Assembly: GCF_000178955.2 (NCBI RefSeq)
Contig: NC_016631.1
Span: forward strand, 2,542,001-2,606,000
DNA from: Granulicella mallensis MP5ACTX8
GTDB lineage: Bacteria > Acidobacteriota > Terriglobia > Terriglobales > Acidobacteriaceae
Reading direction: 5' to 3'
Length of the DNA stretch: 64,000 nt
Every line of letters starts with the position of its first letter. The stretch's first letter is position 1. This document shows positions 31,941 to 53,400 of the stretch, in pieces. Below the pieces are notes generated by a model, which saw nothing but the letters and a program-made list of their open reading frames with translations, made no database searches and was not told the DNA's origin. The translations under genes were made by a program, and so were the position numbers.

Positions 31941-32668
31941 AGTTCTCCGAGTTTAGGTTTTGCTGAGTTGTAATGCTGTGTTTTTTACAGTCACGGTGCA
32001 GGGATTTTACAGTGATGCCCCCCGCGCCCATAGGCGTAGGCAATGAGGAGGCCAGGATGAGAGCTCGAGTTTCGCCTCTTACCCAACGATTCAACTCGCG
32101 ACCTTCGCGACGCTTTCATCGGACCTACTTAGGCGTGACGATACAGAGAATATCGGGCTGTCGAGATCCGCACTAAGGTTTGCAGGTGCTTCGCCGTCCG
32201 GAACCCGAGAGCCAGATGCTGGTGGCCAATCCGGTACTGGAAGGTGTGAGCCGTCCCAACCAGAGTGCTGGTGCTCGATTTCGGACCCCAACTCGTCCCT
32301 CAGTCATCTTGTTACGGTTACATTCACGTTCTATATATAGATGCAAAATTGAGAAAATGAACTACTTAGCAAAATTCTTGAATGGAATTTAGGAGAAGCG
32401 GTAATCGGAAGATGATGCCACCGGGGACTACAAGCGTAATCTCGGTTCCGGAACTCGCAGAGCTGACGAGCGTAAGAGTAGCGCCGATCCGAACAGCTCG
32501 TTCTCGCATCCCTTGTAGCCCGAAGTGTCCTTCTTTGCCCAGTTCTGCTACAAGGCTGCCTTCTCGGGCAAGGGAATAGCTGCTGCGTCGACACTTTTTC
32601 CCTGTTTCAATGGCTCCAGATGAAACCGATCGATATGACCCGTTCCTGAAATAGTTTCTGCCTTCCCG
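31941..32668. other. 728-bp gene-poor interval between glycerate kinase and sigma-54 activator
   Basis: Visibly more AT-rich than the core genome. The first ~170 bases upstream of the glycerate kinase ATG should hold the catabolic operon promoter. The only interpretable coding trace is the histidine-kinase remnant at 32366-32566. No transposase or terminal repeats seen. Confidence 0.6.
32366..32566 (-). pseudogene. C-terminal remnant of a LytS/NarX-type sensor histidine kinase
   Basis: On the minus strand the frame reads GKEGHFGLQGMRERAVRIGATLTLVSSASSGTEITLVVPGG, which is the end of the HATPase domain of HisKA_3-type kinases (GHFGLxGMRERAxxxGGxLxxxSxxGxGTxxxxxxP). The N-box, G1 box and the dimerisation domain are gone; the upstream frame loses similarity. 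It sits directly downstream, same strand, of the sigma-54 activator. Confidence 0.7.
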
Positions 32669-33697: not shown

Positions 33698-33904
33698 CTC
33701 ACATTTACGGTCTGACTGCCTCCAGTTTCTCCGGCGAGAGGTGCCGCGTAAATGCAACAGCGATCAATTGCCAGTCAAACCGCACTCTAAATCTCACATT
33801 CTGCGGGGCAGGAGTTCGTTTCCGGTAAACTGGGTTACGTCCAGACACAATTTGAGCATTACTGGCGGATCAATAGAACATTGGTGGCTGACTTTCAAAA
33901 TTCT

Positions 33905-36328: not shown

Positions 36329-36676
36329 CTATTGGCCTCTCTGAGCTCTTCCGCATGATGCTTTCCCCAGTCCTCCAGAAGCGACAAGATCGGCATGAGG
36401 CTTTATACCCAACGGAGTCAGCACATAATCTATGCGCTGCGGCTCGTTGGGAAAGGTCGCGCGCGCGATGAGGCCGTGCTCTTCCAGCACACGAAGCTGT
36501 TCGGTGAGAACCTTCTGCGATATGCCAACGATCTGATTTTCTAATTCGCAGATTCGTTTCGGACCCTCGAGTAGCACATAGATGATGACCGCCTTCCAGC
36601 GGCCGGAGATAACGCCTAGCGTTCGTTCGAGCGGTAAGCCCGGAAGGTTTTTCGTGATTCTCATCTTGCACACCAA
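36329..36676 (-). CDS. HxlR-family transcriptional regulator with late frameshift
   Basis: A winged-helix regulator of redox or electrophile-responsive type: LERTLGVISGRWKAVIIYVLLEGPKRICELENQIVGISQKVLTEQLRVLEEHGLIARATFPNEPQRIDYVLTPLGIK is a textbook HxlR domain split here across residues 14-91. After LTPLGIK the frame departs from the family, while the next frame continues LMPILSLLEDWGKHHAEELREANRL, exactly the expected dimerisation helix. A one-base indel near 36405 therefore truncates the C-terminus. The single Cys near the N-terminus (MVCKM) may be a redox sensor. It is divergent to the SDR-led gene cluster. Confidence 0.85.
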   Translation of the reverse strand: MVCKMRITKNLPGLPLERTLGVISGRWKAVIIYVLLEGPKRICELENQIVGISQKVLTEQLRVLEEHGLIARATFPNEPQRIDYVLTPLGIKPHADLVASGGLGKASCGRAQRGQ

Positions 36677-36864
36677 ATTGTGTGCAGATTGAAAACCCTG
36701 TTGGATCTAGTCTGCCTCTTAGGTGGCACCACGCATGGAAGCACTCATGCCTGGATTGCTCTACACAGTTGCCTATCGATGCCTCTGTTTTGGTCGCGTC
36801 ATTATTTCGACAACTGACATCCGAACTGGTATTCCGATGACACCTTAAGGACAACGGAATGCCC

Positions 36865-36949: not shown

Positions 36950-37690
36950 ATGACAACAACCTCAACAAAGAGTGCCTTGGTTACTGGAGCTTCTGGCGGC
37001 ATTGGACGTGCAGTTGCAAAGAGGCTCGCACAGGATGGGTTTGATATCGCCGTGCACTACGCCGGAAATCCAGACAAAGCAAATGCCATCGCGGCAGAAA
37101 TTAAAAATGCGGGTGTCAACACGATCACGCTTCAAGCAGACATTGCAAATGCGGCGGATGTAGAACGGCTCTTTAAAGAAACACTTGCGGCTTTCGGCAG
37201 GCTTGACGTTGTCGTCAACTCCGCCGGAATTATGCCGATGCTGCCGATTTCTGGCGGCGACATCGAAAGCTTCGACAAGGTGGTTGCAACGAATTTGCGC
37301 GGCAGCTTCCTCATCATGGGCGAGGCCGCGAAACATCTCACAGCGGGCGGGCGCATTATCGCTTTCTCAAGCAGTGTAATTGCAAAATCATTTCCAAATT
37401 ACGGCCCTTACATTGCAACGAAGGCTGGAGTTGAAGGCCTCGTGCGTGTGCTTGCGAATGAACTTCACGGCCGGAACATCACAGTGAACGCGGTGGCCCC
37501 TGGTCCGGTTGCAACTCCATTATTCCTAAAGGGCAAAACCGACGCGCAGATCGCTGAATTCGGCAAACTTGCTCCGCTCGAACGCCTGGGCCAACCAGAA
37601 GACATCGCTAACGTTGTGTCCTTCCTCGCTGGTCCCGATGGTGGTTGGGTAAACGGGCAGGTACTACGTGCCAATGGCGGTTTCGCCTAA
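36950..37690 (+). CDS. SDR family oxidoreductase (first gene of the redox cluster)
   Basis: A 246-residue classical short-chain dehydrogenase: TGASGGIGRAVAKRL cofactor loop, NSAGIMPM (NNAG-type), and YIATK catalytic Tyr-Lys, then APGPVATPLFLKGKTDAQIAEF. The second beta-strand ends HYAGNPDKA; lack of an acidic residue there is compatible with NADP(H). ATG at 36950 has an AAGGAGAG ribosome-binding site; the open frame extends a little further up. It is the gene directly divergent to the HxlR regulator and so its likeliest target. Substrate unknown. Confidence 0.88.
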   Translation: MTTTSTKSALVTGASGGIGRAVAKRLAQDGFDIAVHYAGNPDKANAIAAEIKNAGVNTITLQADIANAADVERLFKETLAAFGRLDVVVNSAGIMPMLPISGGDIESFDKVVATNLRGSFLIMGEAAKHLTAGGRIIAFSSSVIAKSFPNYGPYIATKAGVEGLVRVLANELHGRNITVNAVAPGPVATPLFLKGKTDAQIAEFGKLAPLERLGQPEDIANVVSFLAGPDGGWVNGQVLRANGGFA

Positions 37691-37777
37691 ACGCTTAAGG
37701 CGTTTATGTGTCTTGGTTCTCGGGAACCGATTCCTAGTTCTTATACCTGCAAGGTGAATAAAGACGGAGGAAAGTTT

Positions 37778-38689
37778 ATGAAAAAGATCATCGTCATCAC
37801 GGGTGCATCGAGCGGATTTGGGGCACTAGCGGCCCGTGCACTGGCAAACGCCGGCCACACAGTTTACGCAAGCATGCGCGAAACCTCAGGCAGGAATGCT
37901 CCCCAGGTCAAGGACGCGGAAAAGTACGCAGCCGACCACAAAGTGGACCTCCGTACTATCGAACTGGACGTCTCGTCTGAGACATCGTGCAATGCCGCGA
38001 TCCAGCAAATCATCTCCCAGAATGGGCGACTGGATGTTGTTGTTCATAACGCTGGTCATATGGTCTTTGGTCCGGCCGAAGCTTTCACGCCAGAGCAACT
38101 TGCGGAGCTATACGACGTCAACGTGCTCAGCACTCAACGCGTCAATCGGGCAGCCTTACCCGAACTTCGCAAGCAGCGGAATGGTCTTGTGGTCTGGGTA
38201 TCGAGCAGCAGCGCAGCGGGAGGTACCCCTCCCTATCTTGCTCCTTATTTCGCTGCCAAGGCCGGCATGGATGCCCTGGCCGTGGTCTACTCGCGTGAGT
38301 TAGCGCGCTGGGGCATCGAGACATCTATCATCGTTCCCGGCGCCTTTACCGGCGGAACGAATCACTTCGCACACGCCGGACATCCTGCGGACGCAGCACG
38401 TGCTGCGGAATATGACTCCGGTCCCGATGCTGGCTTAGGAGATCAGGCACTCAAAGGCTTTGCCTCCATCGTGCCCCCGGATGCAGATGCCTCCGCTGTC
38501 GCGACAGCGATCGTAAAGGTCGTCGATGCTCCCTTCGGCAAGCGGCCGTTCCGGGTACACGTTGATCCGACGCAGGACGGTGCGGAAGTCGTCAACGCAG
38601 TCTCTGATCGAGTGCGCGCCGAACTTCTCCGTCGCATCGGTCTTGGCGACCTGCTGGAACCTCGGTCGTATGGCGAGAAATCACACTAA
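37778..38689 (+). CDS. SDR family oxidoreductase
   Basis: A 303-residue SDR with TGASSGFGALAARAL, VHNAGHMVFG and YFAAK (catalytic Tyr-Lys), followed by VPGAFTGGTNHF. It has about fifty extra C-terminal residues typical of the group that includes NADP-dependent ketoreductases of the YASMRET type (position after strand two reads YASMRE, where Arg favours NADPH). GGAGG at 37766-37770 supports the ATG at 37778. Third codon position is GC-rich, similar to neighbours. Substrate unknown. Confidence 0.87.
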   Translation: MKKIIVITGASSGFGALAARALANAGHTVYASMRETSGRNAPQVKDAEKYAADHKVDLRTIELDVSSETSCNAAIQQIISQNGRLDVVVHNAGHMVFGPAEAFTPEQLAELYDVNVLSTQRVNRAALPELRKQRNGLVVWVSSSSAAGGTPPYLAPYFAAKAGMDALAVVYSRELARWGIETSIIVPGAFTGGTNHFAHAGHPADAARAAEYDSGPDAGLGDQALKGFASIVPPDADASAVATAIVKVVDAPFGKRPFRVHVDPTQDGAEVVNAVSDRVRAELLRRIGLGDLLEPRSYGEKSH

Positions 38690-38723
38690 CCCTATTGTCC
38701 GGTCTTCGAGGGAAAGAGCATCC

Positions 38724-39851
38724 ATGTCTGCTCCCACCAATATCGTTTCCAGTGGATCGGTGAAGACGCTTTTTTCGCCGATCCGCGTCGGACCGTTGAC
38801 GCTCTCACATCGTGTAGTGATGGCACCTCTCACGCGGCTGCGTTCGCAAATTCCTGGGGACGTTCCTGTCGACCTGATGGCCGAGTATTACGGGCAGCGT
38901 GCATCAGAAGGCGGTCTCATCGTCTCGGAGGGTGCCACAGTGTCTATCGGTGGCCGTGGCTATCTTGGTGCACCTGGCATCTATTCCGAGGAACAGATCG
39001 CCGGTTGGCGAAGGGTCACGGAGGCAGTCCACGCAAAGGGTGGGTATATCTTTCTGCAACTCTGGCATGTGGGGCGCGTGTCCCATGTCGACATGACCAA
39101 CTGCGAGATGCCTGTCGCACCTTCGGTTGTTCCATTCGAGGGGATTGTCGTCACCCGCAATGGTTTCGTGCCGCCTTCCCCTCACCGAGCGCTCGAAATT
39201 GAAGAGATTCCCAAGCTGATCGGTGAGTTTCGCAAAGCAGCATGGAACGCCAAAGCCGCAGGTTTCGACGGTGTTGAGATTCATGGCGCCAACGGCTACA
39301 TACTCGACCAGTTTCTTCAAGATGGTACGAATAAGCGCACGGACTCTTATGGGGGGCCAATCCAGAATCGCGCCCGCCTCTTGTTTGAAGTTCTGGATGT
39401 AACCGCAGCTGTATGGGGAGAGGACCGTGTCGGTGTACGGCTCTCGCCCAACTCCACATACAACGCGATGTTTGATAGCGACCCTGAAGCGACATTTGGT
39501 TATGTGGCCGATCGGCTTAACCGCTACGCCCTTGCCTATCTCCACGTCATTGAACCTCGCGTCAAGGGTATTGAAACAGTAGGCGAAGGCCAACCTCCCG
39601 TAGCGTCCGCTCTGCTACGAAAAATTTATAAAGGGAACATTCTCGCCGCAGGTGGTTTTGATCCCGCAAGCGCCGAAGCCATCATCGAGAGAAATGACGC
39701 CGATATGGTCGCCTTTGGCCGTTATTTCATCTCCAACCCGGACTTACCAAAACGTATTCAACTTGGGCTGCCGCTTAACGACTACGATCGCGAAACGTTT
39801 TACAACAATGATGCACGAGGCTATACCGACTATCCGTTCTATGACGAGTAA
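38724..39851 (+). CDS. Old-yellow-enzyme alkene reductase (NemA/OYE-like)
   Basis: A 375-residue FMN TIM barrel that reduces activated C=C bonds (enones, maleimides, nitro compounds) with NAD(P)H. Family blocks: LFSPIRVGPLTLSHRVVMAPLTRLRS, EGATVSIGGRGYLGAPGIYS, LQLWHVGRVSH, FDGVEIHGANGYILDQFLQDGTNKRTDSYGG (His-x-x-Asn substrate-binding pair in HGAN), VGVRLSP, and GGFDPASAEAII...FGRYFISNPDLP (FMN phosphate site). The start at 38724 is set by the M-S-A-P N-terminus 34 bases after the upstream SDR. OYEs are typically electrophile-inducible, which agrees with an HxlR-type regulator. Confidence 0.93.
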   Translation: MSAPTNIVSSGSVKTLFSPIRVGPLTLSHRVVMAPLTRLRSQIPGDVPVDLMAEYYGQRASEGGLIVSEGATVSIGGRGYLGAPGIYSEEQIAGWRRVTEAVHAKGGYIFLQLWHVGRVSHVDMTNCEMPVAPSVVPFEGIVVTRNGFVPPSPHRALEIEEIPKLIGEFRKAAWNAKAAGFDGVEIHGANGYILDQFLQDGTNKRTDSYGGPIQNRARLLFEVLDVTAAVWGEDRVGVRLSPNSTYNAMFDSDPEATFGYVADRLNRYALAYLHVIEPRVKGIETVGEGQPPVASALLRKIYKGNILAAGGFDPASAEAIIERNDADMVAFGRYFISNPDLPKRIQLGLPLNDYDRETFYNNDARGYTDYPFYDE

Positions 39852-39898
39852 TTCATCGACTTCAACGCTACTGAACTGGCACACGCGAGGAGAAGAAC

Positions 39899-41074
39899 AT
39901 GGCAAAGGTATTGTGCGTTCTCTATGATGACCCCACTTCTGGTTACCCACCTCTGTATGCCAGGAACGCTATTCCCAAGATCGAAAGGTATCCGGACGGA
40001 CAGACCGTTCCTAATCCGAAGCATATTGATTTTGTTCCCGGAGAGCTTTTAGGTTGCGTCTCAGGAGAGTTGGGTCTACGAAGCTATCTCGAAGATCTTG
40101 GGCATACCTTCATCGTTACTTCCGATAAGGAAGGCCCAAATTCTGTGTTTGAAAAAGAGCTGCCCGATGCCGATATCGTGATCTCGCAGCCCTTCTGGCC
40201 GGCCTATCTCACTGCCGAAAGAATCGCAAAGGCGAAGAAGCTGAAGCTGGCGCTGACCGCCGGGATCGGTTCGGATCATGTTGACCTCAACGCTGCGATC
40301 AAAGCCGGCATCACTGTCGCTGAAGAGACCTTCTCCAATGGCATTTGTGTTGCCGAACATGCGGTCATGATGATCCTGGCGCTGGTCCGAAACTATCTTC
40401 CATCGCACAAGATTGCCGAGGAAGGTGGCTGGAATATCGCGGACTGCGTCTCACGCTCCTATGACCTCGAGGGAATGCACGTTGGGACGGTTGCCGCAGG
40501 CAGAATCGGACTTGCCGTCCTGCGTCGCCTCAAGCCCTTCGACGTCAAGCTCCACTACACTGCCCGGCATCGCAGTCCCAGGGCGATTGAAGACGAGTTG
40601 GGCCTGACGTACCACGCAACGGCCGAAGAGATGGCCGAGGTCTGCGATGTGATCAGCATCCATGCCCCGCTTTATCCTGCGACGGAGCATCTCTTCAACG
40701 CGAAAGTCCTGAATAAGATGAGGCACGGCTCTTATCTCGTGAATACTGCGCGTGCCGAGATCTGCGATCGGGACGACATCGTCCGCGCACTCGAAAGCGG
40801 TCAACTCGCGGGCTATGCGGGAGATGTCTGGTTCCCGCAACCTGCGCCGGCCAATCATCCCTGGAGGAACATGCCACATAACGGAATGACACCGCATATG
40901 TCAGGCTCATCGTTATCGGGACAAGCGCGTTACGCCGCAGGGACACGAGAGATTCTGGAGTGCTGGTTTGAGAACCGCCCGATCCGCGACGAATATCTGA
41001 TTGTGTCGAATGGAAAACTCGCGGGAACCGGAGCCAAGTCTTATGGTGTCGGCGAGGCACCAAAAGGCAAGTAG
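39899..41074 (+). CDS. fdh: NAD(P)-dependent formate dehydrogenase, predicted NADP-preferring
   Basis: Oxidises formate to CO2 with hydride transfer to a nicotinamide cofactor in the cytoplasm; metal-free D-2-hydroxyacid-dehydrogenase fold. The 391-residue protein aligns end to end with the Pseudomonas sp. 101 enzyme: SQPFWPAYLT, ALTAGIGSDHVDL, formate-binding Asn147 (FSNGIC), GTVAAGRIGLAVLRRL, NTARAEICDRD (catalytic Arg), GDVWFPQPAP (Gln) and GMTPHMSG (His). Where NAD-specific enzymes have Asp-Arg (YTDRHRLP), this one has Ala222-Arg223 (YTARHRSP). Losing that acidic residue while keeping the Arg is what distinguishes NADP-using FDHs, so it probably makes NADPH. Confidence 0.95.
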   Translation: MAKVLCVLYDDPTSGYPPLYARNAIPKIERYPDGQTVPNPKHIDFVPGELLGCVSGELGLRSYLEDLGHTFIVTSDKEGPNSVFEKELPDADIVISQPFWPAYLTAERIAKAKKLKLALTAGIGSDHVDLNAAIKAGITVAEETFSNGICVAEHAVMMILALVRNYLPSHKIAEEGGWNIADCVSRSYDLEGMHVGTVAAGRIGLAVLRRLKPFDVKLHYTARHRSPRAIEDELGLTYHATAEEMAEVCDVISIHAPLYPATEHLFNAKVLNKMRHGSYLVNTARAEICDRDDIVRALESGQLAGYAGDVWFPQPAPANHPWRNMPHNGMTPHMSGSSLSGQARYAAGTREILECWFENRPIRDEYLIVSNGKLAGTGAKSYGVGEAPKGK

Positions 41075-41167
41075 CGGAGCCATTGAGCCCATGCCAGAGT
41101 TGCGGCTTGTAGCTAAGAGCCAATTGACTATTGTTGACTTTTCAATCCCAGAAATGGAGGCACGACC

Positions 41168-41644
41168 ATGAGTACAAAACAAATGCCAAACCCCGCACCA
41201 CCCTTTACACGCGAGACCGCCATTCTGAAAGTACGTCTCGGAGAGGACGGATGGAACACCAGAGATCCTGAGAAGGTCTGTCTGGCATACACCGTTGATA
41301 GCCACTGGCGTAACCGAGCGGAGTTTGTCACGGGCCGGGAAGAGATCAAACATTTCCTGACACGAAAATGGCAGCGTGAGCTGGATTATCGGCTTATCAA
41401 GGAGTTGTGGGCTTTTAGCGACACTCGCATCGCGGTTCGCTTCGCTTATGAGTGGCACGATGATTCCGGCAACTGGTTTCGGTCTTACGGGAACGAGAAC
41501 TGGGAGTTCGACGAGAAGGGCATCATGCATCATCGCTACGCATGCATCAATGATCTCCCGATCAAAGAGTCTGAACGAAAGTATCACTGGCCTCTGGGAC
41601 GCCGTCCGGACGATCATCCCGGATTGACTGAGCTTGGTCTATAG
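41168..41644 (+). CDS. DUF1348 / SnoaL-like (NTF2 fold) protein
   Basis: A 158-residue cytoplasmic protein of the DUF1348 family: [92 protein letters not shown] and a conserved tail ending [12 protein letters not shown]. The fold is a cone-shaped alpha+beta barrel that in relatives binds or isomerises small hydrophobic molecules. No reaction is established. It sits within the redox cluster, 93 bases after the formate dehydrogenase. Confidence 0.88.
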
Positions 41645-41659
41645 ACGACTGCGGTCTCG

Positions 41660-41694
41660 CCTGAACTACGTTGTCGGCGACAACGTAGTTCAGG
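41660..41694. repeat. Perfect 17-bp-arm hairpin after the DUF1348 gene
   Basis: Arms 41660-41676 and 41678-41694 are exact reverse complements (CCTGAACTACGTTGTCG and its complement) about a single G. It lies 15 bases after the DUF1348 stop and 67 bases before the next ATG. There is no following T-run, so it could be a 3'-end stabiliser, a processing site or a regulator-binding palindrome rather than a simple terminator. Confidence 0.7.
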
Positions 41695-41761
41695 TATAGC
41701 CATTGCGCCGCGCTTTTTAGCGCAGTCTGCTCGTCCATCAGGGTATCTAAGAGGGGGCAAC

Positions 41762-42391
41762 ATGAGTGGTATCGAATCATTACTGAAACCTGAAGAGTGT
41801 GCTTTGCTTCTCGTCGATTTCCAGGCGGGGCTAGCCTTTGGCGTGGAGTCGATCTCGCGCCAGGCCATCGTCGATAACGCGGTGGCCCTTGCGCGGACGG
41901 CTGTAGTCTTTGAGATCCCCATTGTCGTATCGACTTCGGCTTCAAAGGTCTACAGTGGCCCTCTTCTGCCACCGCTGCAAGCGGTTCTGCCCGACGTCAA
42001 GTCAATCGAACGGCGGAACATGAATGTATGGGAGGATGAGACGGCTCACTCGGCAATCGTGGCGACCAATCGCAGGCGGTTGATTGTGGCTGGGTTGCTT
42101 ACCGAAGCGTGTGTCTCGTTTCCTGTGCTGTCTGCTCTCAAAGAAGGTTATGAAGTCTTCGTTGTCGGTGACGCTTGCGGAGGGCTGACGCAGACCGGGC
42201 ATGCACTCGCCCTGCAACGAATGGAACAGGCTGGAGCGCAACTCACAAGCTGGATTCAGGTACTGCTGGAACTCCAGCGTGATTGGACGAGGCACGAAAC
42301 CTATGAAGGTGCCCGAGCGATTGTAGAAGCAAACGGTGGTGGATACGGTATCGGGTTGGCCTACGCGCACACCATGATTCATCCGGTCTGA
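41762..42391 (+). CDS. Isochorismatase-like cysteine hydrolase (YcaC type)
   Basis: A 209-residue member of the isochorismatase-like superfamily: ECALLLVDFQAGLAF (catalytic Asp), VVSTSASKVYSGPLLP, SIERRNMNVWEDE (family-specific block) and VAGLLTEACVSFPVLSALKEGYEVFVVGDACGG with the nucleophile Cys. The PxxxRRxMNxWED pattern is that of the YcaC subgroup, hydrolases of unknown amide or ester substrate. It is within the redox cluster, preceded by GAGGGGG near the ATG. Confidence 0.87.
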   Translation: MSGIESLLKPEECALLLVDFQAGLAFGVESISRQAIVDNAVALARTAVVFEIPIVVSTSASKVYSGPLLPPLQAVLPDVKSIERRNMNVWEDETAHSAIVATNRRRLIVAGLLTEACVSFPVLSALKEGYEVFVVGDACGGLTQTGHALALQRMEQAGAQLTSWIQVLLELQRDWTRHETYEGARAIVEANGGGYGIGLAYAHTMIHPV

Positions 42392-42489
42392 GCCGCTTCC
42401 GGTTCTGCGCTGTTGCCATCCAGCGATTGTCTTTATGCCTCTGAGCAGCTCTGCTCCCTCTGTGTTTTGGGAGCGAAAGGAAAGATCAC

Positions 42490-43242
42490 ATGGAATCCTT
42501 ACAGAAACATGTCGTCATCATTACTGGCGGAAGCTCCGGAATCGGACGGGCTGCGGCTCTGTCTTTCGCTGCGATGGGAGCTAGAGTCCTTATCACTGGC
42601 AGACGGGCAGCAAGTCTGGATGAGACAGCGAAGGACCAGCCGAATATAGAGACTCTGGTCGCCGACACGGCAGAGCCGAAAGACGCGGCGCGGACGATAG
42701 CCCGGGCCATCGAGCTCTGGGGGCGCATTGATGTTCTAGTCAACAATGCAGGAGCGGGGGCGATCATGCCGCTGGCAGACGTTACGGCCGAACGAATCCT
42801 CGACATCTTTGCGGTCAACGTTCTAGGTCCATCATTGCTTGCAAAGGAAGCGCTTCCTTACCTGAAAGAGAGGAAGGGTTCAATTATCAATATTTCGAGC
42901 ACGTATGGCTCAAAACCAGGCGCGGCACTCTCACACTATGGTGCGAGCAAGGCCGCACTCGAATACCTGACTCGTAGTTGGGCTTTGGAGTTGGCGCCCT
43001 TCGGAGTTCGCGTGAATGCAATAGCTGTCGGCCCAACAGAGACAGGAGCGCTGGAGGGCATGATGGGGCTTTCAAGACAACAAGCCGAGGCCGTTAAGCA
43101 GCAGGAGCGAGAGCATATACCGCTAGGGCGGCGGGGTCTTCCCCGCGATGTCTCCCGCTGGATCGTTTCATTTGCCGACCCAACTTCCGACTGGATCACC
43201 GGTCAGGTCTTAGGCGTCGACGGTGGACTCAACCTGATTTAG
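42490..43242 (+). CDS. SDR family oxidoreductase
   Basis: A 250-residue classical SDR: TGGSSGIGRAAALSF, second-strand ITGRRAASLDE (Arg-Arg suggests NADPH), NNAGAGAIMPL, NISSTYGS and YGASK catalytic Tyr-Lys, ending VDGGLNLI. The motif ITGR with arginine after strand two is the usual NADP marker. No substrate can be deduced. It belongs to the same-strand redox cluster, 98 bases after the YcaC-like gene, with GAAAGGAAAG just before the ATG. Confidence 0.88.
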   Translation: MESLQKHVVIITGGSSGIGRAAALSFAAMGARVLITGRRAASLDETAKDQPNIETLVADTAEPKDAARTIARAIELWGRIDVLVNNAGAGAIMPLADVTAERILDIFAVNVLGPSLLAKEALPYLKERKGSIINISSTYGSKPGAALSHYGASKAALEYLTRSWALELAPFGVRVNAIAVGPTETGALEGMMGLSRQQAEAVKQQEREHIPLGRRGLPRDVSRWIVSFADPTSDWITGQVLGVDGGLNLI

Positions 43243-43316
43243 CGGTCGCGGACGATCACCCTCCCCATCATTCTTCATATGTATTGATTCAGCACGCCCC
43301 TCGAGGAATAACAGCG

Positions 43317-45038
43317 ATGGTCACATCGTTCGAACTCGCACAGATACCGCTCTTCGAGCTTTTGTCGCCAGTACAAAGAGAGAAGATCTCCAGGACGGCT
43401 GCAGATCTTCGGGTACGAGCTGGAGAGTGGCTGGCTCAAGAAGGTGACATTCCATCATTCTTTGTGGTGCTTGAAGGTAGCGTCGAGTTCCTCAAAAAAA
43501 TTGGTGGAGTAACAGAGCCGATGATTGTGTATGAGGCCGAAGAGTTTTTTGGAGAAGTTCCTCTTCTGCTCGGCGCCAGGGTACTGGTTGGACTTCGTGC
43601 GCGCGTGGATTCTCGAATACTAAGAATTGATAGGTCACAGTTTCTCGAACTGATCACCGAGTCGAGGTGTTGGAGCGATCGGATTCTGGGAGCCATGGCT
43701 ACACGAGTACGCAGTGTTCAGGAGACAATTCGTCGAACACGAACAGAGAGGGTTGTCCTTATCGGAGATGAGATGCACGCACAGTGCCGTGGCATCCTGA
43801 CTTTTCTTTCGCGTTGCGGTATTCCATATTGTTGGATTGATCGAACGTTCGATATAGATCGTCTTCCTGAGAATCTACTTATACCGACCGAAGGGTTGGT
43901 AGCAATTGTGGACGGGCAAAAGATATTGCCTGAGCCGACAGAAAGCGAAATGGCCGAAGCGCTTGGCATTCAGACGACACCATATGCTACCGCCTATGAT
44001 GTCGTCATTATCGGAGCCGGCCCTGCGGGCTTGGCCGCGGCAGTCTGCGGCTCTTCAGAAGGTCTCAAAGTTCTGATCGTAGAGCAAGCCACGCCTGGGG
44101 GACAGGCGGGAACTTCTTCAAGAATCGAGAACTATTTGGGGTTCCCGGGCGGGATTTCTGGAGACGAGCTCAGTGATCGAGCACTCTGTCAGGCGCGTCG
44201 CTTCGGCGCGGAGATTGTGATTACCAGAAGGGCCGAGCGAATCGACGTAACTGGTGAGGAAAAGACCGTCACACTGAATGAAGGCCTGAAGGTTCGTTCG
44301 CGTTCAGTTGTGCTGGCAACGGGCGTCGATTGGCGCTTACTCGAGGCAGATGGAATTGAAAAGATGATCGGCCACGGAGTCGTTTACGGAGCATCCAGGA
44401 CCGAAGCAATGGCCGTGATCGGAAAGCACATATTCATTGTCGGTGGGGGGAATTCAGCGGGGCAAGCCGCAATTTATTTCTCGGGCTATGCAGCCGGCAT
44501 TACGATGATCGTCCGCGGGAACGGTCTCGCTCAGAGCATGTCGCAATATCTCGTCGCAGAGATCGAGAAAAAGACGAATATCCGCGTGGAGGCGCATACG
44601 GAGGTTACGTCGGTAAATGGCGTCTTCAACCTTGAAGCTATCACTACAGCGGATCGCAAAACGGGAGATATCAAGACCCGGAAGATAGATGCTCTATTCG
44701 TCATGATTGGCGCAAAGACAGACACTGCATGGCTACCTGTTGAAATGCTCCGCGATGAGCACGGTTACGTTTGTACCGGAGGAGACGCCCATGGTAGCTG
44801 GCCACTTTTGCGCTCTCCGTATCCGCTAGAAACGACCGTGCCAGGAATCTTTTGTGCCGGTGATGTTCGCCACGGCTCAATCAAACGAGTCGCCTCAGGA
44901 GTTGGCGAAGGAAGCACAGCCATCACATTTGTTCATCAATATCTGGCTCTCTCGAATCAGCTTTCCAGCCTGGAACTCTTGTGCCATCAGGAGCGAAGAG
45001 AGCCTCGGGACGGTGTGGCTCGTCAAGCTGCGCTTTGA
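43317..45038 (+). CDS. Cyclic-nucleotide-binding domain fused to thioredoxin-reductase-like flavoprotein (no redox cysteines)
   Basis: A 573-residue fusion. Residues about 1-125 are a CRP-type cNMP-binding jelly roll (IPLFELLSPVQREKI...LAQEGDIPSFFVVLEGSVEFLKK...FFGEVPLLLGARVLVGLRA). Residues about 225-555 are a two-dinucleotide-binding-domain flavoprotein: VIIGAGPAGLAAAV, PGGQAGTSSRIENYLGFPGGISG, LATG, IVGGGNSAGQAAIYF and FCAGDVRHGS. Where thioredoxin reductase has its CxxC disulfide this protein reads VVYGASRTEAMA, so it cannot work as a standard TrxR and may be an NAD(P)H oxidase or reductase gated by a nucleotide. ATG at 43317 is preceded by GAGGAATA. Confidence 0.85.
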   Translation: MVTSFELAQIPLFELLSPVQREKISRTAADLRVRAGEWLAQEGDIPSFFVVLEGSVEFLKKIGGVTEPMIVYEAEEFFGEVPLLLGARVLVGLRARVDSRILRIDRSQFLELITESRCWSDRILGAMATRVRSVQETIRRTRTERVVLIGDEMHAQCRGILTFLSRCGIPYCWIDRTFDIDRLPENLLIPTEGLVAIVDGQKILPEPTESEMAEALGIQTTPYATAYDVVIIGAGPAGLAAAVCGSSEGLKVLIVEQATPGGQAGTSSRIENYLGFPGGISGDELSDRALCQARRFGAEIVITRRAERIDVTGEEKTVTLNEGLKVRSRSVVLATGVDWRLLEADGIEKMIGHGVVYGASRTEAMAVIGKHIFIVGGGNSAGQAAIYFSGYAAGITMIVRGNGLAQSMSQYLVAEIEKKTNIRVEAHTEVTSVNGVFNLEAITTADRKTGDIKTRKIDALFVMIGAKTDTAWLPVEMLRDEHGYVCTGGDAHGSWPLLRSPYPLETTVPGIFCAGDVRHGSIKRVASGVGEGSTAITFVHQYLALSNQLSSLELLCHQERREPRDGVARQAAL

Positions 45039-45191
45039 TCTCTGTTCACAAAGGAAGGCTCAAGCTATACAGCACAACAGGTGAAACGTAATTGAATTGA
45101 CGATCGAATACTCAGGTTGTCAATCGATCTTCAGACGGAATAAGCGGCACAGTTCGCCGCATCCCTTCCCAACCAGTACAGGAGTGCATCA

Positions 45192-45995
45192 ATGCAAGTG
45201 ATAAAGAGAGATGGAATTGCTTTAGCTTACGAGGACCTTAACCCAGGGGCGCCACCGATTATCTTTGTGCACGGATGGAGTTGCGATCATGCTGTTTTTG
45301 CGCAGCAGGCAGAGTTCTTCAGCCGATCTCACCGTGTCGTCTCGGTCGATCTTCGTGGCCATGGCAACAGCGACGCGCCGGATCAAGACTATACGATGGC
45401 TTCTTTCGCGGATGACCTTGCGTGGCTGTGTGGTGAACTTGCATTGGTGAGACCGATCGTTGTGGGCCACAGCATGGGTGGAAATGTAGCTCTCGAGTTG
45501 GCGGCCCGTCATCCAGAGGTTCCTGCTTCGATCATTTTGATTGATTCAATCATTTCTTCGTCCCAACCGTTTCGCGATTCACTGCAACCGGTCGTTGAAG
45601 CCCTGGCAGGGCCGGACTACGTTACCGCGTGCCGGCAGGCAATGGCGTCGACATTACTTCCCACAGATGATGAAGAAAAGAAAAGGATACTGATTACATC
45701 CTTGCCGAAGGCCCCGCAACACGTTCTGACATCCACTCTCAAGAACCATCTGTTGGACTATGATTCGACCTCTGTTGCCGCAGGCTGTCATGTGCCGGTT
45801 GCCTATATAGGCGCAGCAATCTTGATGACTGATCTGATTCAACTTCAGAGGCTCACACCACAGCTTGTTACCGCTCAGACTTTGGGATCAGGCCACTTCT
45901 CTCCTCTGTTTGTGCCCGATCAAATCAACACGATGATTCAGACTTTTCAGGACGTCTACTCCCCTAAATCGGAAAACAGTGGAGCGGGATTGTGA
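45192..45995 (+). CDS. Alpha/beta hydrolase
   Basis: A 267-residue single-domain hydrolase: IIFVHGWSCDHAVFAQQ (oxyanion loop), SVDLRGHGNSDAP, IVVGHSMGGNVALELAARHP (nucleophile Ser in GHSMGG) and LGSGHFSPLFVPDQ (catalytic His). The family covers esterases, lactonases, C-C hydrolases and non-heme peroxidases; the tryptophan-rich peroxidase signature is not obvious. Substrate is unknown. It follows the flavoprotein after 153 bases and precedes an SDR gene. Confidence 0.88.
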   Translation: MQVIKRDGIALAYEDLNPGAPPIIFVHGWSCDHAVFAQQAEFFSRSHRVVSVDLRGHGNSDAPDQDYTMASFADDLAWLCGELALVRPIVVGHSMGGNVALELAARHPEVPASIILIDSIISSSQPFRDSLQPVVEALAGPDYVTACRQAMASTLLPTDDEEKKRILITSLPKAPQHVLTSTLKNHLLDYDSTSVAAGCHVPVAYIGAAILMTDLIQLQRLTPQLVTAQTLGSGHFSPLFVPDQINTMIQTFQDVYSPKSENSGAGL

Positions 45996-46083
45996 CAGGA
46001 TGTCTTGCTGGATCATTGATGAGATAGCGAAGTTGGAGAAGACATCGTATTACGGATTCGATCTATCAAAGAGGAGCTGATTT

Positions 46084-46893
46084 ATGGATTTACATCTTCA
46101 CGGGAAACGGGCGCTTGTTACTGGGAGCAGTTCTGGAATTGGTGCCGAGATCGCAAGAATGCTTGCTTCGGAGGGAGCTAAAGTAGTCGTTCATGGGCGC
46201 GACAAAACACGAGCGAGGGCAGTGGCCCAAAGGATTGAGAGCGCTGGAGGTCAAGCATTCGTGGCGCTTGGGGATCTCAATTCGGAAGCCGGGGCTGCAA
46301 CTGTTGTTGAGACAGCTCAACAAGCCTTCGGCGGTGTCGATATCCTGGTAAACAATGTTGGCGGCTCTGCCAGTGTTGCGCATCTTTCATGGTTCGATGC
46401 TCCACTCGAGGAATGGGCAGAAAATTATCAGCATAATGTGCTCGTCGCAGTCCGTCTCGTCAAAGCTCTTGTTCCCGCTATGCGCGAGCGCGGTTGGGGC
46501 AGAGTGATTCAGATTTCGTCGCGGAATGCTATCTCGCCGCATGTACAGTTTGGCGGGTATGGTGCAGCGAAAGCGGGGCTCAATAACTTCACTCTCAGCT
46601 TGTCGAAAGCTCTATCCGGAACGGGAGTGACATCCAATGGAATCATGCCAGGATTGATCGACACGCCTCAGCTAGATTCCTGGTTCCTTCAGATCGCTGA
46701 GAAGCATGCGGGGACGCAAGACCCAAAGGACGGACGGCAATATGTTCTGAAGAATATTGTCCATCAGACGGTTGATCGACTAGGTGAGCCTAAGGACATT
46801 GCGGCGGCAGTTTGTTATCTCGCAAGCCCGCTCAGTGACTTCATGACAGGAACGACGTTCAGAATTGACGGAGGCTCAACGCCGACTGTTTGA
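46084..46893 (+). CDS. SDR family oxidoreductase
   Basis: A 269-residue SDR: LHGKRALVTGSSSGIGAEIARML, second-strand VVVHGRDKTRA (HGRD, compatible with NADP), NNVGGSASVAHLSW, ISSRNAISPHVQFGGYGAAK (catalytic Tyr-Lys), and a closing TGTTFRIDGGSTPTV. It resembles 3-oxoacyl-ACP-reductase-like dehydrogenases annotated for sugar or hydroxy-acid substrates. It precedes an IMPase-like phosphatase and a sugar mutarotase, which hints at a carbohydrate substrate; this is inference. AGAGGAGCTG before the ATG supports the start. Confidence 0.88.
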   Translation: MDLHLHGKRALVTGSSSGIGAEIARMLASEGAKVVVHGRDKTRARAVAQRIESAGGQAFVALGDLNSEAGAATVVETAQQAFGGVDILVNNVGGSASVAHLSWFDAPLEEWAENYQHNVLVAVRLVKALVPAMRERGWGRVIQISSRNAISPHVQFGGYGAAKAGLNNFTLSLSKALSGTGVTSNGIMPGLIDTPQLDSWFLQIAEKHAGTQDPKDGRQYVLKNIVHQTVDRLGEPKDIAAAVCYLASPLSDFMTGTTFRIDGGSTPTV

Positions 46894-46991
46894 TGATGGA
46901 TAGCAATAAGGCGAAAGAGAGACTGTCGACAAGATCGAATTCAGGAAAGAGAAACAGATAGCTTAGCGGTTGCACGTACAAGGAGATCGTT

Positions 46992-47816
46992 TTGAATACC
47001 ACCCATGCAATGCCCATTGCTCCAAGCGAGGCTCTACGGAAACGCTTTGAGATCGCACGCGAGGTGATACTGGAGGCCGGAGCTTTGGCAAACGGTTATT
47101 TTCGCAGGATCGGAACCCTTACGGTCAAGAGCAAAGGTTCGCATGACCTGGTCAGTGAAGCCGACGTGAATACAGAGGACTTGATCCGCAAGAGCTTCGC
47201 CACGCATTTTCCGGAAGACGCGTTCTTCGGCGAAGAAAGTGGCATGACGGACCTCAATCACGCGTCCGGTATCTGGGTCGTTGACCCCATAGACGGGACG
47301 CAACCGTTTCTTTGCGGAATGCCGAACTGGTGCGTCTCGATTGCGTTTGTATTGAACGGAACATTAGAGTTCGGTCTAATTTACAACCCTCCTTGCGAGG
47401 AGTTGTTCGTCGGAGGCAAGAGCTTCCCGGCTACAGTCAACGGTGTCCCTCTTCGGACCAATCCCGGGACCGACTTTTCGGCGGGCTTGGTGAGTATCGG
47501 CTTCTCACCTCGGTCTCCACACGCCTTCCTTTTTGACTCCTTGACAAAGCTCCTCGCGGGCAAAGGCATGTTCTTCCGCAACGGCTCAGGAGCCTTATCG
47601 CTCGTGTACGTCGGTGCTGGCCGTCTTTTGGGGCATGTCGAGCCCCACATGCACTCATGGGACTGCCTGGGTGCAATTGCGATCATCGAAGCGGCCGGGG
47701 GCAAGGTGAACGATTACCTCACTGGCGATGCCTTGCGTAATGGAAATCGGGTCGTTGCCGGCGCACCTAGAGTGTTCGACCAACTCGATACGCTTCTCGA
47801 GCGTGGAGAAGGCTAA
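46992..47816 (+). CDS. Inositol-monophosphatase-family phosphatase
   Basis: A 274-residue Li-sensitive-fold phosphatase with all metal motifs: DLVSEADVNTEDLI, FFGEESG (Glu-Glu), IWVVDPIDGTQPFLCGMPNWCVSIA (DPxDGTxxF, the family's signature), and HSWDCLGAIAIIEAAGGKVNDY (W-D). It could act on inositol phosphate, histidinol phosphate or a related sugar phosphate. TTG start at 46992 is preceded by AAGGAGATCG. Four bases of the family pattern differ (GTQPF for GTxNF), which may shift substrate preference. Confidence 0.88.
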   Translation: MNTTHAMPIAPSEALRKRFEIAREVILEAGALANGYFRRIGTLTVKSKGSHDLVSEADVNTEDLIRKSFATHFPEDAFFGEESGMTDLNHASGIWVVDPIDGTQPFLCGMPNWCVSIAFVLNGTLEFGLIYNPPCEELFVGGKSFPATVNGVPLRTNPGTDFSAGLVSIGFSPRSPHAFLFDSLTKLLAGKGMFFRNGSGALSLVYVGAGRLLGHVEPHMHSWDCLGAIAIIEAAGGKVNDYLTGDALRNGNRVVAGAPRVFDQLDTLLERGEG

Positions 47817-47847
47817 GTGCAGTCCCCAACCGAATCAAGGAGAAATC

Positions 47848-48285
47848 ATGCTTAAAGGAATTGACCCACTTCTATCCCCGGAGCTCCTCAAGGTGCTTAG
47901 TTCAATGGGGCACCGTCACGAGATTGCCATTGTGGACGCAAACTACGCCTGCGATCCGGGCAAGGTGAATGTTATCCGGCTGGACGGCGTCCCTGCGCCC
48001 GCAGCGTTGCGGGCGGTCCTTTCCGTACTGCCGCTTGAACGAAATGACCCTGAAGGTTGCTGGCGAATGATTGCCAAGTCCGACCCCGCCAACGAACAAC
48101 CCATCTTTCTTGAGTTTCAACAGGCAATCGCCGAATTCGAAGACGTGGAGATGAAGCTGGGTACGCTATCTACGGCTGACTTCAAGGACCGTGCACGAGG
48201 CGCCTACGCCGTGCTCGTCACCGGAGAGAGACGTCCCTACGGCAACATTCTCTTGCGCAAAGGCACAGTGAAGCTAACTAAGTAA
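47848..48285 (+). CDS. RbsD/FucU family sugar mutarotase
   Basis: A 145-residue protein: MLKGIDPLLSPELLKVLSSMGHRHEIAIVDANY contains the family's catalytic GHxxxIxxxDxNx block, and it ends GAYAVLVTGERRPYGNILLRKGTV, matching the FucU branch (ERxxYxNxxLxKG). These enzymes interconvert sugar anomers (L-fucose in FucU, D-ribose pyranose/furanose in RbsD). The start at 47848 follows AAGGAGAAATC. It is the last gene of the redox cluster, 31 bases after the IMPase gene. Confidence 0.9.
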   Translation: MLKGIDPLLSPELLKVLSSMGHRHEIAIVDANYACDPGKVNVIRLDGVPAPAALRAVLSVLPLERNDPEGCWRMIAKSDPANEQPIFLEFQQAIAEFEDVEMKLGTLSTADFKDRARGAYAVLVTGERRPYGNILLRKGTVKLTK

Positions 48286-48568
48286 GGAAGCTGCTGGCGT
48301 TCCCTAGGGCAACGGTTACGGAACACGCTTTCATGCTCTTAATAGCTATGAGGAATACGCTCTAGAAGATGTTTCCAATATCTCGACCTAGACCTCTGTG
48401 CTCAAAAAGAAAGGTAGACCTCCTGCCAGGTGCCCAGCGCGAGAGCGAGCTTCACCACAGATATGGATAATTGAACCTGAGTCAGTGCCGTCTTCAGATG
48501 AGCTGGCATGTTGTCTGGACCTTCAGAGTCACAAAGATGTGGCATATAAGTGTTTTATTATGAGGGTT

Positions 48569-48847
48569 TTATGGATTCTTCTGCGACACCCTGCAAGCCT
48601 GTGTAAACGTGTGGAAAACGGACACCGCCGCCGCCTCCTTGAACCCATCCAGGTCGGAAATATCCCCGCGACACACCTTGGCGCCGAGCGCGGACACCGC
48701 CGCTGCGGACGCGTCCGACCTGGCTAAGCAGGTGACCTCGTGGCCAGCGGCGATGAGGTCGGGGATGATGTACGAGCCGATATGGCCGTTCGCGGAAGCC
48801 GTATTTTTCGCCACAGCGGAGCTCTTCGCGCACCATGTACGCATCAT
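48569..48847 (-). pseudogene. Fragment of an NAD-dependent epimerase/SDR (atypical SDR)
   Basis: The frame reads ANGHIGSYIIPDLIAAGHEVTCLARSDASAAAVSALGAKVCRGDISDLDGFKEAAA, which is the first half of the Rossmann domain of atypical SDRs (TGATGHIGxxVxxxLIAAGHEVTGLARSxxxAxxLxxxGAxxxxGDLxDLxxL). The TGA part of the loop is corrupted, and similarity stops abruptly at AAA, so the remaining ~220 residues are missing. A dead fragment. Confidence 0.75.
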
Positions 48848-50470: not shown

Positions 50471-53400
50471 TCACGGAATCAGCAAGGGCCGCAAGCCCTG
50501 GCTTTTGATCAAGCCGGTTGGACCGCTCGGAGACTCCAAGGATTGTGGGTGGAAGGCATAACGCAGAAAGAATCCAATTCGATCGTTGTTGTATTCATTC
50601 GCATTGTCCAGGCTGAAGAAGGCACCAAGATGCCAATTTTTGGTAATTAGGTAGGCACCTTCTCCGGTCAGATTGTAGTTCACTCCCACACTGGTATGTT
50701 CCGTGGTGAATGGGTTCTTTGCAGCAACCTGCAGAGAATTATCGATTGGAAAGTAGGGACTGGCACCTTCCTGGAAGGCCTGAATGCCGGCGGCGCCGGC
50801 GATTTGATAATGGAATCTCGTGCCATGGTGGCCATCAAACGTGACTGGAATGTTGCTCAGTAGGTAGGCTTCCGGGCTGAAATAACCTCCATTGCCATAG
50901 GTGAATAATCTTTGATTGTTTGCGTAGTGCATTCCAAAGAAATTCATTCCTACTGTAAGTTTTCCATAGTTTGGGTTCTCCCAAACGGACCAATAAGCTC
51001 CACCGTATCCGTCGATACGACGGTTGTTCTCAACATGATGTCCCGTTATATATTGGCCGCCGATCTCCATATACCAACCCGAGATGCCATCTCCATGGTT
51101 GACCTGTACGGAAGCCGCATTAGTGATTACGCCACCCCAGATATTTCCACTGTAAGACGATGTAGCCGATCCGGGATCGTATAGACCAGCATAGGAGAGC
51201 TGCGAGTCCTGTATCGGTTGACGTTCAAAACTCAGAGTTACGGGACCTGCATTCGGTTGAAGAAGAAAACGTCCCGTTACATTTTCTACGGGGAAGCCAT
51301 GGGGAGTATAGCCCAGAGCGGCGCCAACGCTACGCGTCCGAAGTTGCAGTTCACCGCCAACACCTGAGGCGGTCTGGGCGTTGGAGACGGCGCCGAGGGG
51401 AAGGGTTCCCAATTGGTAGGTCGCCCCCGCATCCGTCGTTCCGCCCTGGAGAAGAGTGGGGTGCACCACTAACGTAAATCGGGCTCCAGGGTTGATCATC
51501 GCGGCCCCTTCGACATCGGCGCTGAAGATCGTAAGCCGGTCGAATCCAGATTGGCCATTGTGGTAATTGACCGAAGAGTCTCCCCCTAGATAGGGACTGG
51601 AGCTGCTTTCGATTGCGTCCAGATGATCCTGTATCTGTTGCCGCGGTGTCAAAGGCTGCGGCACGATATTTGAAGAGCCTGTCAACGGCGGCAGAGCTTC
51701 AGTTTGCGATGGGACGGGGGTGAGCATTGCGTCTAACAGCGTTGAGTCTGCCGTTGGGATGCTCTCTCCTGTGTTGAAAGTCCTGTGCCTTGGAGGCGTA
51801 TTGTCTCGAAGCGTCTCCTGGAGGGGCTGGTCAGACAGGGTGCCATGCGGGATTGCGGGGTAGTGGGCTTCAGCTTCAGACACGGGCAGGTCCGGCGCTA
51901 ATCCAGTTGCTGCTTCACGATGTGTGACTCGGTTGATATGCGGATTTGCTGCACGTGGGCTGTAGTCTGGGGCGTTTGCGACATGTGAATCTTCATTGTT
52001 GTTCGTCCTTGCGGAGTATGAGGTTGCCGTGTGAGACACCGTTGCAGGAGGTGGGATGAGGTCATCATGGTATGTGTCAGTCGCCAGATCCTGATTGACC
52101 GCAGGCTTGTGGGAGCTCTTTCGCCGTGCCGCAGAGGTTTCGCTTGGAGGCAAAGATGCGTAGCCGCCTCGTTCCTCGACTTCGGAGTGCGCGATTAGAT
52201 TGTCGTCCGAATTCGATGTCGAGCGTACTGGCCAAAGAGCTTCTCTGTTGCTACGGCTGGTGTCCGCTATCTCGTCGAATTGATTCTGATTAAGCTTGTC
52301 GTTAGACGAACTCAACATACGGAATAAATCCTGGCTGGCAGAGGATGCGCCCCTGTTGGAACCTGAAGTGACGGTCGATGCTGTGAGCTCGGCTATGCTT
52401 GGCGGTCCCGCTGCCTCCAAGGCTGCGCGATAATATGCTGCCGCTTTCCGAGAATCACCTCGCTTCACCTCGAATTCGGCTGCAAGTTCCAGGATCTTCC
52501 CATTTTTCCCAAAGCGATCAAGCGAAGTCTGTAGCCAGGATAGTGCCTGCTTTTGGTCGCCTGCGGCGAGTGCCGCTCGAACCGCCGCTTCGCAGATAGA
52601 GGCATCTGCTTTGGAGATGTCCTGCCGGTTATAGAGCATGACGGCGCGTTTCGGATCTCCGTCCGCGGCGTAGGCGGCCGCGAGGGAATTGTTGATCGAG
52701 ATATCGGAAGGGAAGGCCCTGAGCGCCGCGGCTAGTACGGCGAGGGCCTCTACATGCTTGCCAACTAAATTTAGTTGGGCTGCGCGTTGAACCGCCCATG
52801 TTGCGTATAGCTGGGTAAGCTGCGCTTGCTGGCTTTCCGTGAGAGCGTCGTTATTGCTCAGATTCTGGATCACGTGGGAGAGGCGCGCGTCCTGGCCCGA
52901 TTGCAGAAATAACCACCCTTCCTGTATCTGAAAGCTGATCGGAGGACTTATTCCCTGGCTGGCATAGATATCATTGGCCTGCTCCATAGCGTCAAACGCT
53001 CGTGCCTTGTTGCCTGCACCGCTGTATATCGATGCCAGGGTCTGCTGATACTCGGCATCATTCTGCAAGGTAGCGCTTAGATCCTCTGGCATCTCTCGGA
53101 TTTGCCCAAGGGCCTCACGGTCGCGAGTCGTGGCGTGAAGTGCCTCGATCCAACCGATCCAGGCCTCCTTCGACCCCGGATGCTCATCTACGATTCGAGC
53201 GTATTCTTCCACGGCATACTGCTTGTCACCGCTCGATAGCTCCATCGAAGCCAGTTGCAACCTTATTGAAAGAGACGGGGCGATTTTGAGGGCCCGGTTG
53301 AGAGCCTCCCTCGCCGCGCTTATCTGATCCTGCGACTGATAGATGCCTGCCAGCATCGACAAAAAGCCAGGGTTATCCTGTTCAGTGGAAGATACGGAAG

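What the first reader, a model, noticed from the sequence alone, without database searches (positions are those of the whole stretch)
36950..48285. Possible formate-powered NADPH redox module under an HxlR regulator
Twelve plus-strand genes follow a divergent HxlR regulator: four SDRs, most with NADP-type second-strand residues, an OYE alkene reductase, a formate dehydrogenase with the NADP-type residue pair, a cNMP-gated TrxR-like flavoprotein, DUF1348, a YcaC-like hydrolase, an alpha/beta hydrolase, an IMPase and a FucU-type mutarotase. FDH could recycle NADPH from formate directly for the reductases. HxlR regulators often sense electrophiles, and OYEs detoxify them. The sequence shows the gene content, direction and spacing (31-153 bp gaps); the joint function is inference. 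I know of no named system with this composition.
Basis: partly seen in the sequence, partly recalled or inferred. Interest (0 to 1): 0.65.

Follow-up and report, generated by a model that had tools for sequence, protein, structure and literature searches.

The report
Granulicella redox gene block with formate dehydrogenase
A run of oxidoreductase genes in the tundra soil bacterium Granulicella mallensis contains a formate dehydrogenase already published as able to use both NAD and NADP; most of the run is shared with one relative and may let formate feed NADPH to its neighbours, but the regulator proposed to control it looks broken and is not shared.

Summary
The gene content is real. The window is Granulicella mallensis MP5ACTX8, and the FDH is identical to the solved enzyme 4XYB, published as having double cofactor specificity. 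A two-cofactor FDH beside four apparently NADP-type SDRs and an ene-reductase is therefore sound.

The 'module under HxlR' is not. Among 200 family genomes, at the thresholds used, FDH has OYE, SDR2 or DUF1348 within 20 kb only here. One other genome, Granulicella sp. L60, shares a block of ten genes (SDR2 to SDR3, ABH to FucU) at 91-98% protein identity and dN/dS 0.03-0.14, including the FDH with its unusual Ala222. There L60 has neither HxlR nor the cNMP-TrxR fusion, and its SDR1 is not co-inherited. The window HxlR carries a frameshift that removes its conserved C-terminus (a sequencing error is not excluded). A 20-mer at its promoter recurs only at the promoter of a paralogue divergent from another OYE. 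L60 has a two-component system there instead, of which the window keeps a 50-codon remnant.

Best reading: a Granulicella accessory redox block under purifying selection, in which a specialised FDH could supply NADPH (or NADH) from formate; regulator unknown. No function was tested.

The parts
32405..32555 (-). 50-codon remnant of the sensor histidine kinase gene that flanks the block in Granulicella sp. L60
   Evidence: 151 bp, 96% nt; HK residues 967-1016, 100% aa
36329..36676 (-). HxlR-type regulator, frameshifted near 36404; the conserved C-terminal part continues in another frame
36667..36691 (.). putative HxlR site: a near-palindrome (36667-36686) overlapping a 20-mer (36672-36691) shared with the HxlR2-OYE2 intergenic region; the paralogue's copy is not palindromic
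   Evidence: 20-mer found at 2 places in the genome at up to 3 mismatches
36950..37690 (+). SDR1; not co-inherited with the block (dS 2.29 to L60)
37778..38689 (+). SDR2; first gene of the conserved block
38724..39851 (+). OYE/N-ethylmaleimide-reductase-like ene-reductase
39899..41074 (+). Formate dehydrogenase, identical to PDB 4xyb; Ala222 where most relatives have Asp
41168..41644 (+). DUF1348; relative solved as 2imj
41660..41694 (.). perfect 17-bp inverted repeat with 1-nt loop; no second copy in the genome at up to 3 mismatches; one change in L60
41762..42391 (+). YcaC-like isochorismatase-fold cysteine hydrolase
42490..43242 (+). SDR3
43284..45038 (+). cNMP-binding + TrxR-like flavoprotein without CxxC; absent from the block in L60
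45192..45995 (+). alpha/beta hydrolase (ABH)
46084..46893 (+). SDR4
46992..47816 (+). inositol-monophosphatase-family phosphatase (IMP)
47848..48285 (+). RbsD/FucU-family mutarotase; last gene, DNA similarity with L60 ends at 48318

Best explanation
A Granulicella accessory redox block of ten co-directional genes (SDR2-OYE-FDH-DUF1348-YcaC-SDR3 and ABH-SDR4-IMP-FucU), under purifying selection between G. mallensis and Granulicella sp. L60. Its FDH is a specialised one without the aspartate that most relatives have at the NAD-selecting position, and is published as using both cofactors; a second FDH elsewhere in the genome keeps the aspartate and lies next to a cyanase gene. Inferred: formate oxidation gives NADPH (and NADH) locally to the ene-reductase and SDRs, which reduce unsaturated or carbonyl compounds. 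HxlR, SDR1 and the cNMP-flavoprotein are not part of the conserved unit, and the HxlR copy is probably impaired, so the block is probably controlled otherwise. Shown by sequence: identity of the FDH, composition, conservation, selection, frameshift. Inferred: joint function, substrates, expression.
For: FDH identical to 4xyb; 'double cofactor specificity' (paper title; review passage). Ala222 in 2 of 60 FDHs; the second G. mallensis FDH has Asp. Ten genes shared with L60 at 91-98% aa, dN/dS 0.028-0.143. SDR1 dS 2.29 against 0.15-0.46 for the other ten. cNMP-TrxR absent: 63-bp gap in L60 and best homologue in that genome 51%. HxlR frameshift. SDR strand-2 ends. The type strain is reported not to use formate or methanol, so a reductant or detoxification role is more likely than growth on formate.
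Against: Two genomes only, both Granulicella. In the other family genomes that hold both genes, FDH-OYE (0 of 3), FDH-DUF1348 (0 of 7) and FDH-SDR2 (0 of 3) are never within 20 kb; no other genome held both FDH and YcaC at the thresholds. Double specificity is not a preference for NADP. No source of formate is recognised in the block. dS differs between genes (0.15-0.46), so the block may be a mosaic. All gaps are positive and an inverted repeat lies between DUF1348 and YcaC, so one transcript is not shown.
Confidence: 0.45

Rival explanations
1. Chance assembly: a variable chromosomal region that collects accessory oxidoreductases of separate functions; the genes are close because they descend from one fragment, not because they work together.
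For: Apart from the kinase remnant and the block itself, the window has no match (E 1e-20) within about 18-20 kb of the block in L60. Of the seven genes surveyed in 200 family genomes (FDH, OYE, DUF1348, SDR2, YcaC, HxlR, FucU), pairs within 20 kb outside G. mallensis are limited to DUF1348-FucU in one genome. The SDR1-SDR2 and IMP-FucU pairs recur separately elsewhere.
Against: The ten shared genes have low dN/dS and keep order and orientation; the FDH carries a rare cofactor-site residue.
Confidence: 0.3
2. HxlR-controlled electrophile response: HxlR senses an electrophile and induces the twelve genes.
For: The closest HxlR paralogue in the same genome is divergent from another OYE and shares about 60 bp of upstream DNA. 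HxlR genes sit beside YcaC-like genes in two other genomes and beside an FDH in Sphingomonas kyeonggiensis. The DNA-binding part of the window HxlR is still open, so a short protein might act.
Against: The window HxlR is frameshifted; HxlR and SDR1 are not conserved with the block; the promoter 20-mer does not recur in the cluster.
Confidence: 0.1
3. Catabolic block in which a hydrolytic step (alpha/beta hydrolase, YcaC-like amidase) releases formate from an N-formyl or similar compound and FDH disposes of it.
For: Hydrolase, cysteine hydrolase and FDH lie in one conserved block; N-formylmaleamate-type pathways combine such enzymes (recalled, no call).
Against: No oxygenase or ring-opening enzyme among the families found in the block; the best NCBIfam matches of both hydrolases are below cut-off (PcaD 75.8 of 255.85 bits; YcaC 163.5 of 310 bits).
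Confidence: 0.1

Closest known systems
Granulicella mallensis formate dehydrogenase (4XYB/4XYE/4XYG; Fogal et al. 2015)
   Same: The window FDH is this very protein, 391 of 391 residues.
   Different: Nothing in the protein. I read no account of its genomic neighbourhood; the paper itself is not held.
Acidobacteriaceae FDH-cyanase (cynS) loci
   Same: Same FDH family, 75-77% identity in the five found; G. mallensis has one too (L066/L139).
   Different: Cyanase beside an FDH with Asp in all five, LysR nearby in three. Widely read only in G. mallensis (L139), where no other gene of the block was found.
HxlR-OYE divergent pair (G. mallensis C1, about 320 kb)
   Same: Paralogous HxlR with the same upstream 20-mer.
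   Different: Full-length HxlR and a different OYE (43%); no other gene of the block within the 16 kb read.
FDH-driven NADPH regeneration in biocatalysis (recalled)
   Same: Same chemistry: formate to CO2 feeding NADPH to an ene-reductase.
   Different: Engineered pairing of unrelated enzymes; here a natural neighbourhood without demonstrated coupling.

Membership tests
Formate dehydrogenase (NF005750/PRK07574) | score above family cut-off | tested here: met
   686.7 bits, cut-off 329
Formate dehydrogenase (NF005750/PRK07574) | aspartate that selects NAD (said to be conserved in the subfamily; that it is position 222 is recalled) | tested here: not met
   Ala222; Asp in 47 of 60 FDHs compared. 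Its absence fits the published double specificity and does not remove membership
HxlR regulator | complete domain including the C-terminal helix used for dimers (helix role recalled) | tested here: not met
   PF01638 positions 1-70 of 91; frameshift against the paralogue. A sequencing error is not excluded
Thioredoxin reductase | redox-active CxxC | tested here: not met
   No CxxC; TIGR01292 202 of 343.45 bits
N-ethylmaleimide reductase (NF007899) | score above family cut-off | tested here: not met
   381.1 of 403 bits; OYE superfamily PF00724 met
YcaC (NF041461) | score above family cut-off | tested here: not met
   163.5 of 310 bits; a cysteine at 117 is present
L-fucose mutarotase FucU (NF011949) | score above family cut-off | tested here: not met
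   80.3 of 141 bits; PF05025 met
Formate-fed NADPH module | FDH and NADPH-type reductases kept together in more than one lineage | tested here: inconclusive
   Kept in G. mallensis and L60 only
Formate-fed NADPH module | reductases consume NADPH made by this FDH | not testable with these tools
   needs enzymology

The most novel reading that the evidence does not exclude
A natural formate-to-NADPH supply built into a detoxification gene block: an FDH without the NAD-selecting aspartate was recruited beside an ene-reductase and SDRs, away from the FDH-cyanase context seen in relatives, so that formate, which the organism is reported not to use, serves as a reductant.
Probability: 0.3. Interest if true: 0.55.

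Novelty: new variant of a known kind. Interest (0 to 1): 0.36.

Why it matters
It gives the biochemically known double-cofactor FDH of G. mallensis a testable natural role, from its conserved neighbours and its contrast with the second FDH of the same genome, which has the aspartate and lies next to a cyanase gene. If true it would be a natural example of formate-driven NADPH supply to ene-reduction, a pairing that I know (recalled) from biocatalysis.

Tried and rejected
HxlR as regulator of the block: rejected as the leading view (frameshift, not conserved, 20-mer not repeated). cNMP-TrxR as a core part: rejected (absent from L60's block). Left boundary at SDR1: rejected, since SDR1 dS is saturated while its neighbours' are not. 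Conserved DUF1348 neighbours: in 30 loci with about 1.5-kb flanks the commonest neighbour family, an SDR, was in 4. Origin of the block FDH: the tree puts it with L60 on a branch of its own (100/100), not in the clade of eight other Acidobacteriaceae FDHs (91/94), but two further family FDHs (G188, G066) also fall elsewhere, the backbone is open and the bootstrap had not settled, so the source is unresolved. Genome-wide divergence from L60 as a baseline: only one further gene of the window aligned well in the stretches compared (83%), too little to say whether the block was recently transferred. Relaxed constraint on HxlR after the frameshift: differences from the paralogue are 64 of 270 columns before and 38 of 119 after (Fisher p = 0.10), and the later ones still favour the third codon position of the old frame (13, 6, 19), so the shift is recent or an assembly error; I withdrew a stronger claim. 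Promoter and terminator scan: promoter-like 2 found against 7.3 in shuffles, terminator-like 12 against 11.5. Structure prediction was not used.

Literature: eight searches. Passages seen in PMC6303947, PMC12588301, PMC7338344, PMC4518329 (two reference-list entries, no use) and PMC3910553, and the FDH section of PMC6303947; others only as search listings. Fogal 2015 was seen only as a reference-list entry (not held). I found no account of this cluster in those searches, which cover open-licence papers only.

Full report
Identity. The window lies in a single-contig genome of 6,237,577 bases, the size published for Granulicella mallensis MP5ACTX8 (passages of PMC3910553). The FDH aligns without a difference over 391 residues to PDB 4xyb/4xye/4xyg. 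[quoted passage not shown]; paper not read), and a review cites it for double specificity. So 'strict NAD specificity' does not refute the finding, but the enzyme itself is already known.

Gene content. All four SDRs have TGxxxGxG and YxxxK and, by my reading, no acidic residue at the end of strand 2, which fits NADP by motif only. The TrxR-like protein has no CxxC, so it is not a thioredoxin reductase in mechanism; binding of a cyclic nucleotide is untested.

Conservation. A genome-collection scan with the FDH gave 57 loci; 50 besides L60's encode an FDH at E 1e-60 and six are distant relatives. Only L001, Granulicella sp. L60, keeps the neighbours: SDR1, SDR2, OYE, FDH, DUF1348, YcaC, SDR3, ABH, SDR4, IMP, FucU. 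None of the other 56 loci shows SDR2, OYE, DUF1348 or YcaC at E 1e-10 and 55% coverage; 36 of the 56 are at least 20.5 kb long, the rest are cut by contig ends. Seven genes were surveyed in 200 genomes of the family, own genome included: FDH is in 8, OYE in 17, DUF1348 in 66, SDR2 in 10, YcaC in 10, FucU in 2 and HxlR in 1, at thresholds from E 1e-33 to 1e-120. Pairs of different genes within 20 kb occur only in G. mallensis, except DUF1348-FucU in G101. Outside G. mallensis both FDH and OYE are held by 3 genomes, FDH and DUF1348 by 7, FDH and SDR2 by 3, FDH and YcaC by none. SDR3, ABH, SDR4, IMP and the cNMP-flavoprotein were not surveyed.

What is conserved. DNA similarity to L60 runs from 36968 to 43258 and from 45178 to 48318. 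Between them the window has the cNMP-flavoprotein; between the two genes L60 has 63 bp, and its best homologue in that genome is 51%. dN/dS for the ten genes from SDR2 on is 0.028-0.143 and dS 0.15-0.46; SDR1 has dS 2.29, so SDR1 was not inherited with them. The gap between YcaC and SDR3 is 96 of 98 identical. The 41660-41694 inverted repeat is kept with one change and has no second copy in the genome at up to 3 mismatches.

Regulator. In L60 the divergent neighbours are a LuxR-type response regulator and a sensor kinase, and the window keeps 50 codons of that kinase at 32405-32554. The simplest reading is that a two-component system flanked the block before the stretch with HxlR arrived. The window HxlR matches its paralogue (78% over residues 2-93) up to about residue 90 and then changes frame; the conserved tail continues in another frame. 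Differences are 64 of 270 columns before that point and 38 of 119 after (p = 0.10), still with third-position excess, so the shift is recent or an assembly error; the genome had 213x Illumina and 18.5x 454 coverage. The paralogue has the full domain and is divergent from a different OYE. The two share about 60 bp upstream, with a 20-mer that occurs nowhere else in the genome at up to 3 mismatches; common descent alone could explain that, and the near-palindrome of the window copy is not found in the other. HxlR genes also lie beside YcaC-like genes in G119 and G160 and beside an FDH in Sphingomonas kyeonggiensis; I did not test these against chance.

Cofactor site. At position 222, of 60 distinct FDHs, 47 have Asp, 5 Gln, 4 Glu, 2 Lys and 2 Ala; the two Ala are the window and L60. 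The second G. mallensis FDH has Asp and lies beside a cyanase and a LysR gene; flags one TAG inside its match, which I did not examine. Cyanase is adjacent in 5 of the 9 family FDH places, all five with Asp, and was not found in the 57 loci. Thus the block FDH differs from these Acidobacteriaceae FDHs in context and at the cofactor site. In the tree it is a separate branch with L60 (100/100); its origin is unresolved.

Mechanism. G. mallensis is reported not to use formate or methanol. A two-cofactor FDH kept with an ene-reductase and SDRs fits local supply of NADPH or NADH from formate for reduction of unsaturated and carbonyl compounds. This is inference. Against it: two genomes only, no recognised formate source in the block, double specificity rather than NADP preference, and possible mosaic history. 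Confidence is 0.45 for the whole statement; I hold the evolutionary part more firmly than the metabolic coupling (about 0.3).

Verdict.

Noticed in passing
G000:C1:1013096-1014259 (L066, L139); L059-L062: FDH is adjacent to cyanase (cynS) in 5 of 9 Acidobacteriaceae FDH places, with a LysR gene at three of the five; a possible FDH-cyanase functional unit.
   Followed up: partly
L190 11738-13370: Full-length HxlR paralogue divergent from a second OYE, sharing about 60 bp of upstream DNA with the window HxlR.
   Followed up: partly
L136, L137, L140, L141, L143-L148: SDR1-like and SDR2-like genes are adjacent at 10 of the 11 SDR2 places outside the window that I fetched with wide flanks, of 13.
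   Followed up: partly
L188 5883-17337: In G101 the IMP-FucU pair (82/78%) follows MarR, SnoaL, SDR and zinc-type oxidoreductase genes, and DUF1348 follows a cyanase gene.
   Followed up: partly
L050 7260-11158: Sphingomonas kyeonggiensis has HxlR upstream of FDH, with a divergent quinone-oxidoreductase-like gene and an alpha/beta hydrolase (the last two names by eye).
   Followed up: no
window 48569-48847: Short NAD(P)-binding (NmrA-like) ORF on the minus strand just past the block, probably a gene remnant.
   Followed up: no
window 50471-61396: Cellulose-synthase-type operon on the minus strand: BcsC C-terminal domain found; a 1455-aa ORF looks like a fused synthase, by eye only.
   Followed up: no
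window 32669-33757: Minus-strand sigma-54 activator (AAA domain plus Fis-type HTH) between the kinase remnant and the TPR regulator, in the stretch that stands where L60 has its two-component genes.
   Followed up: no
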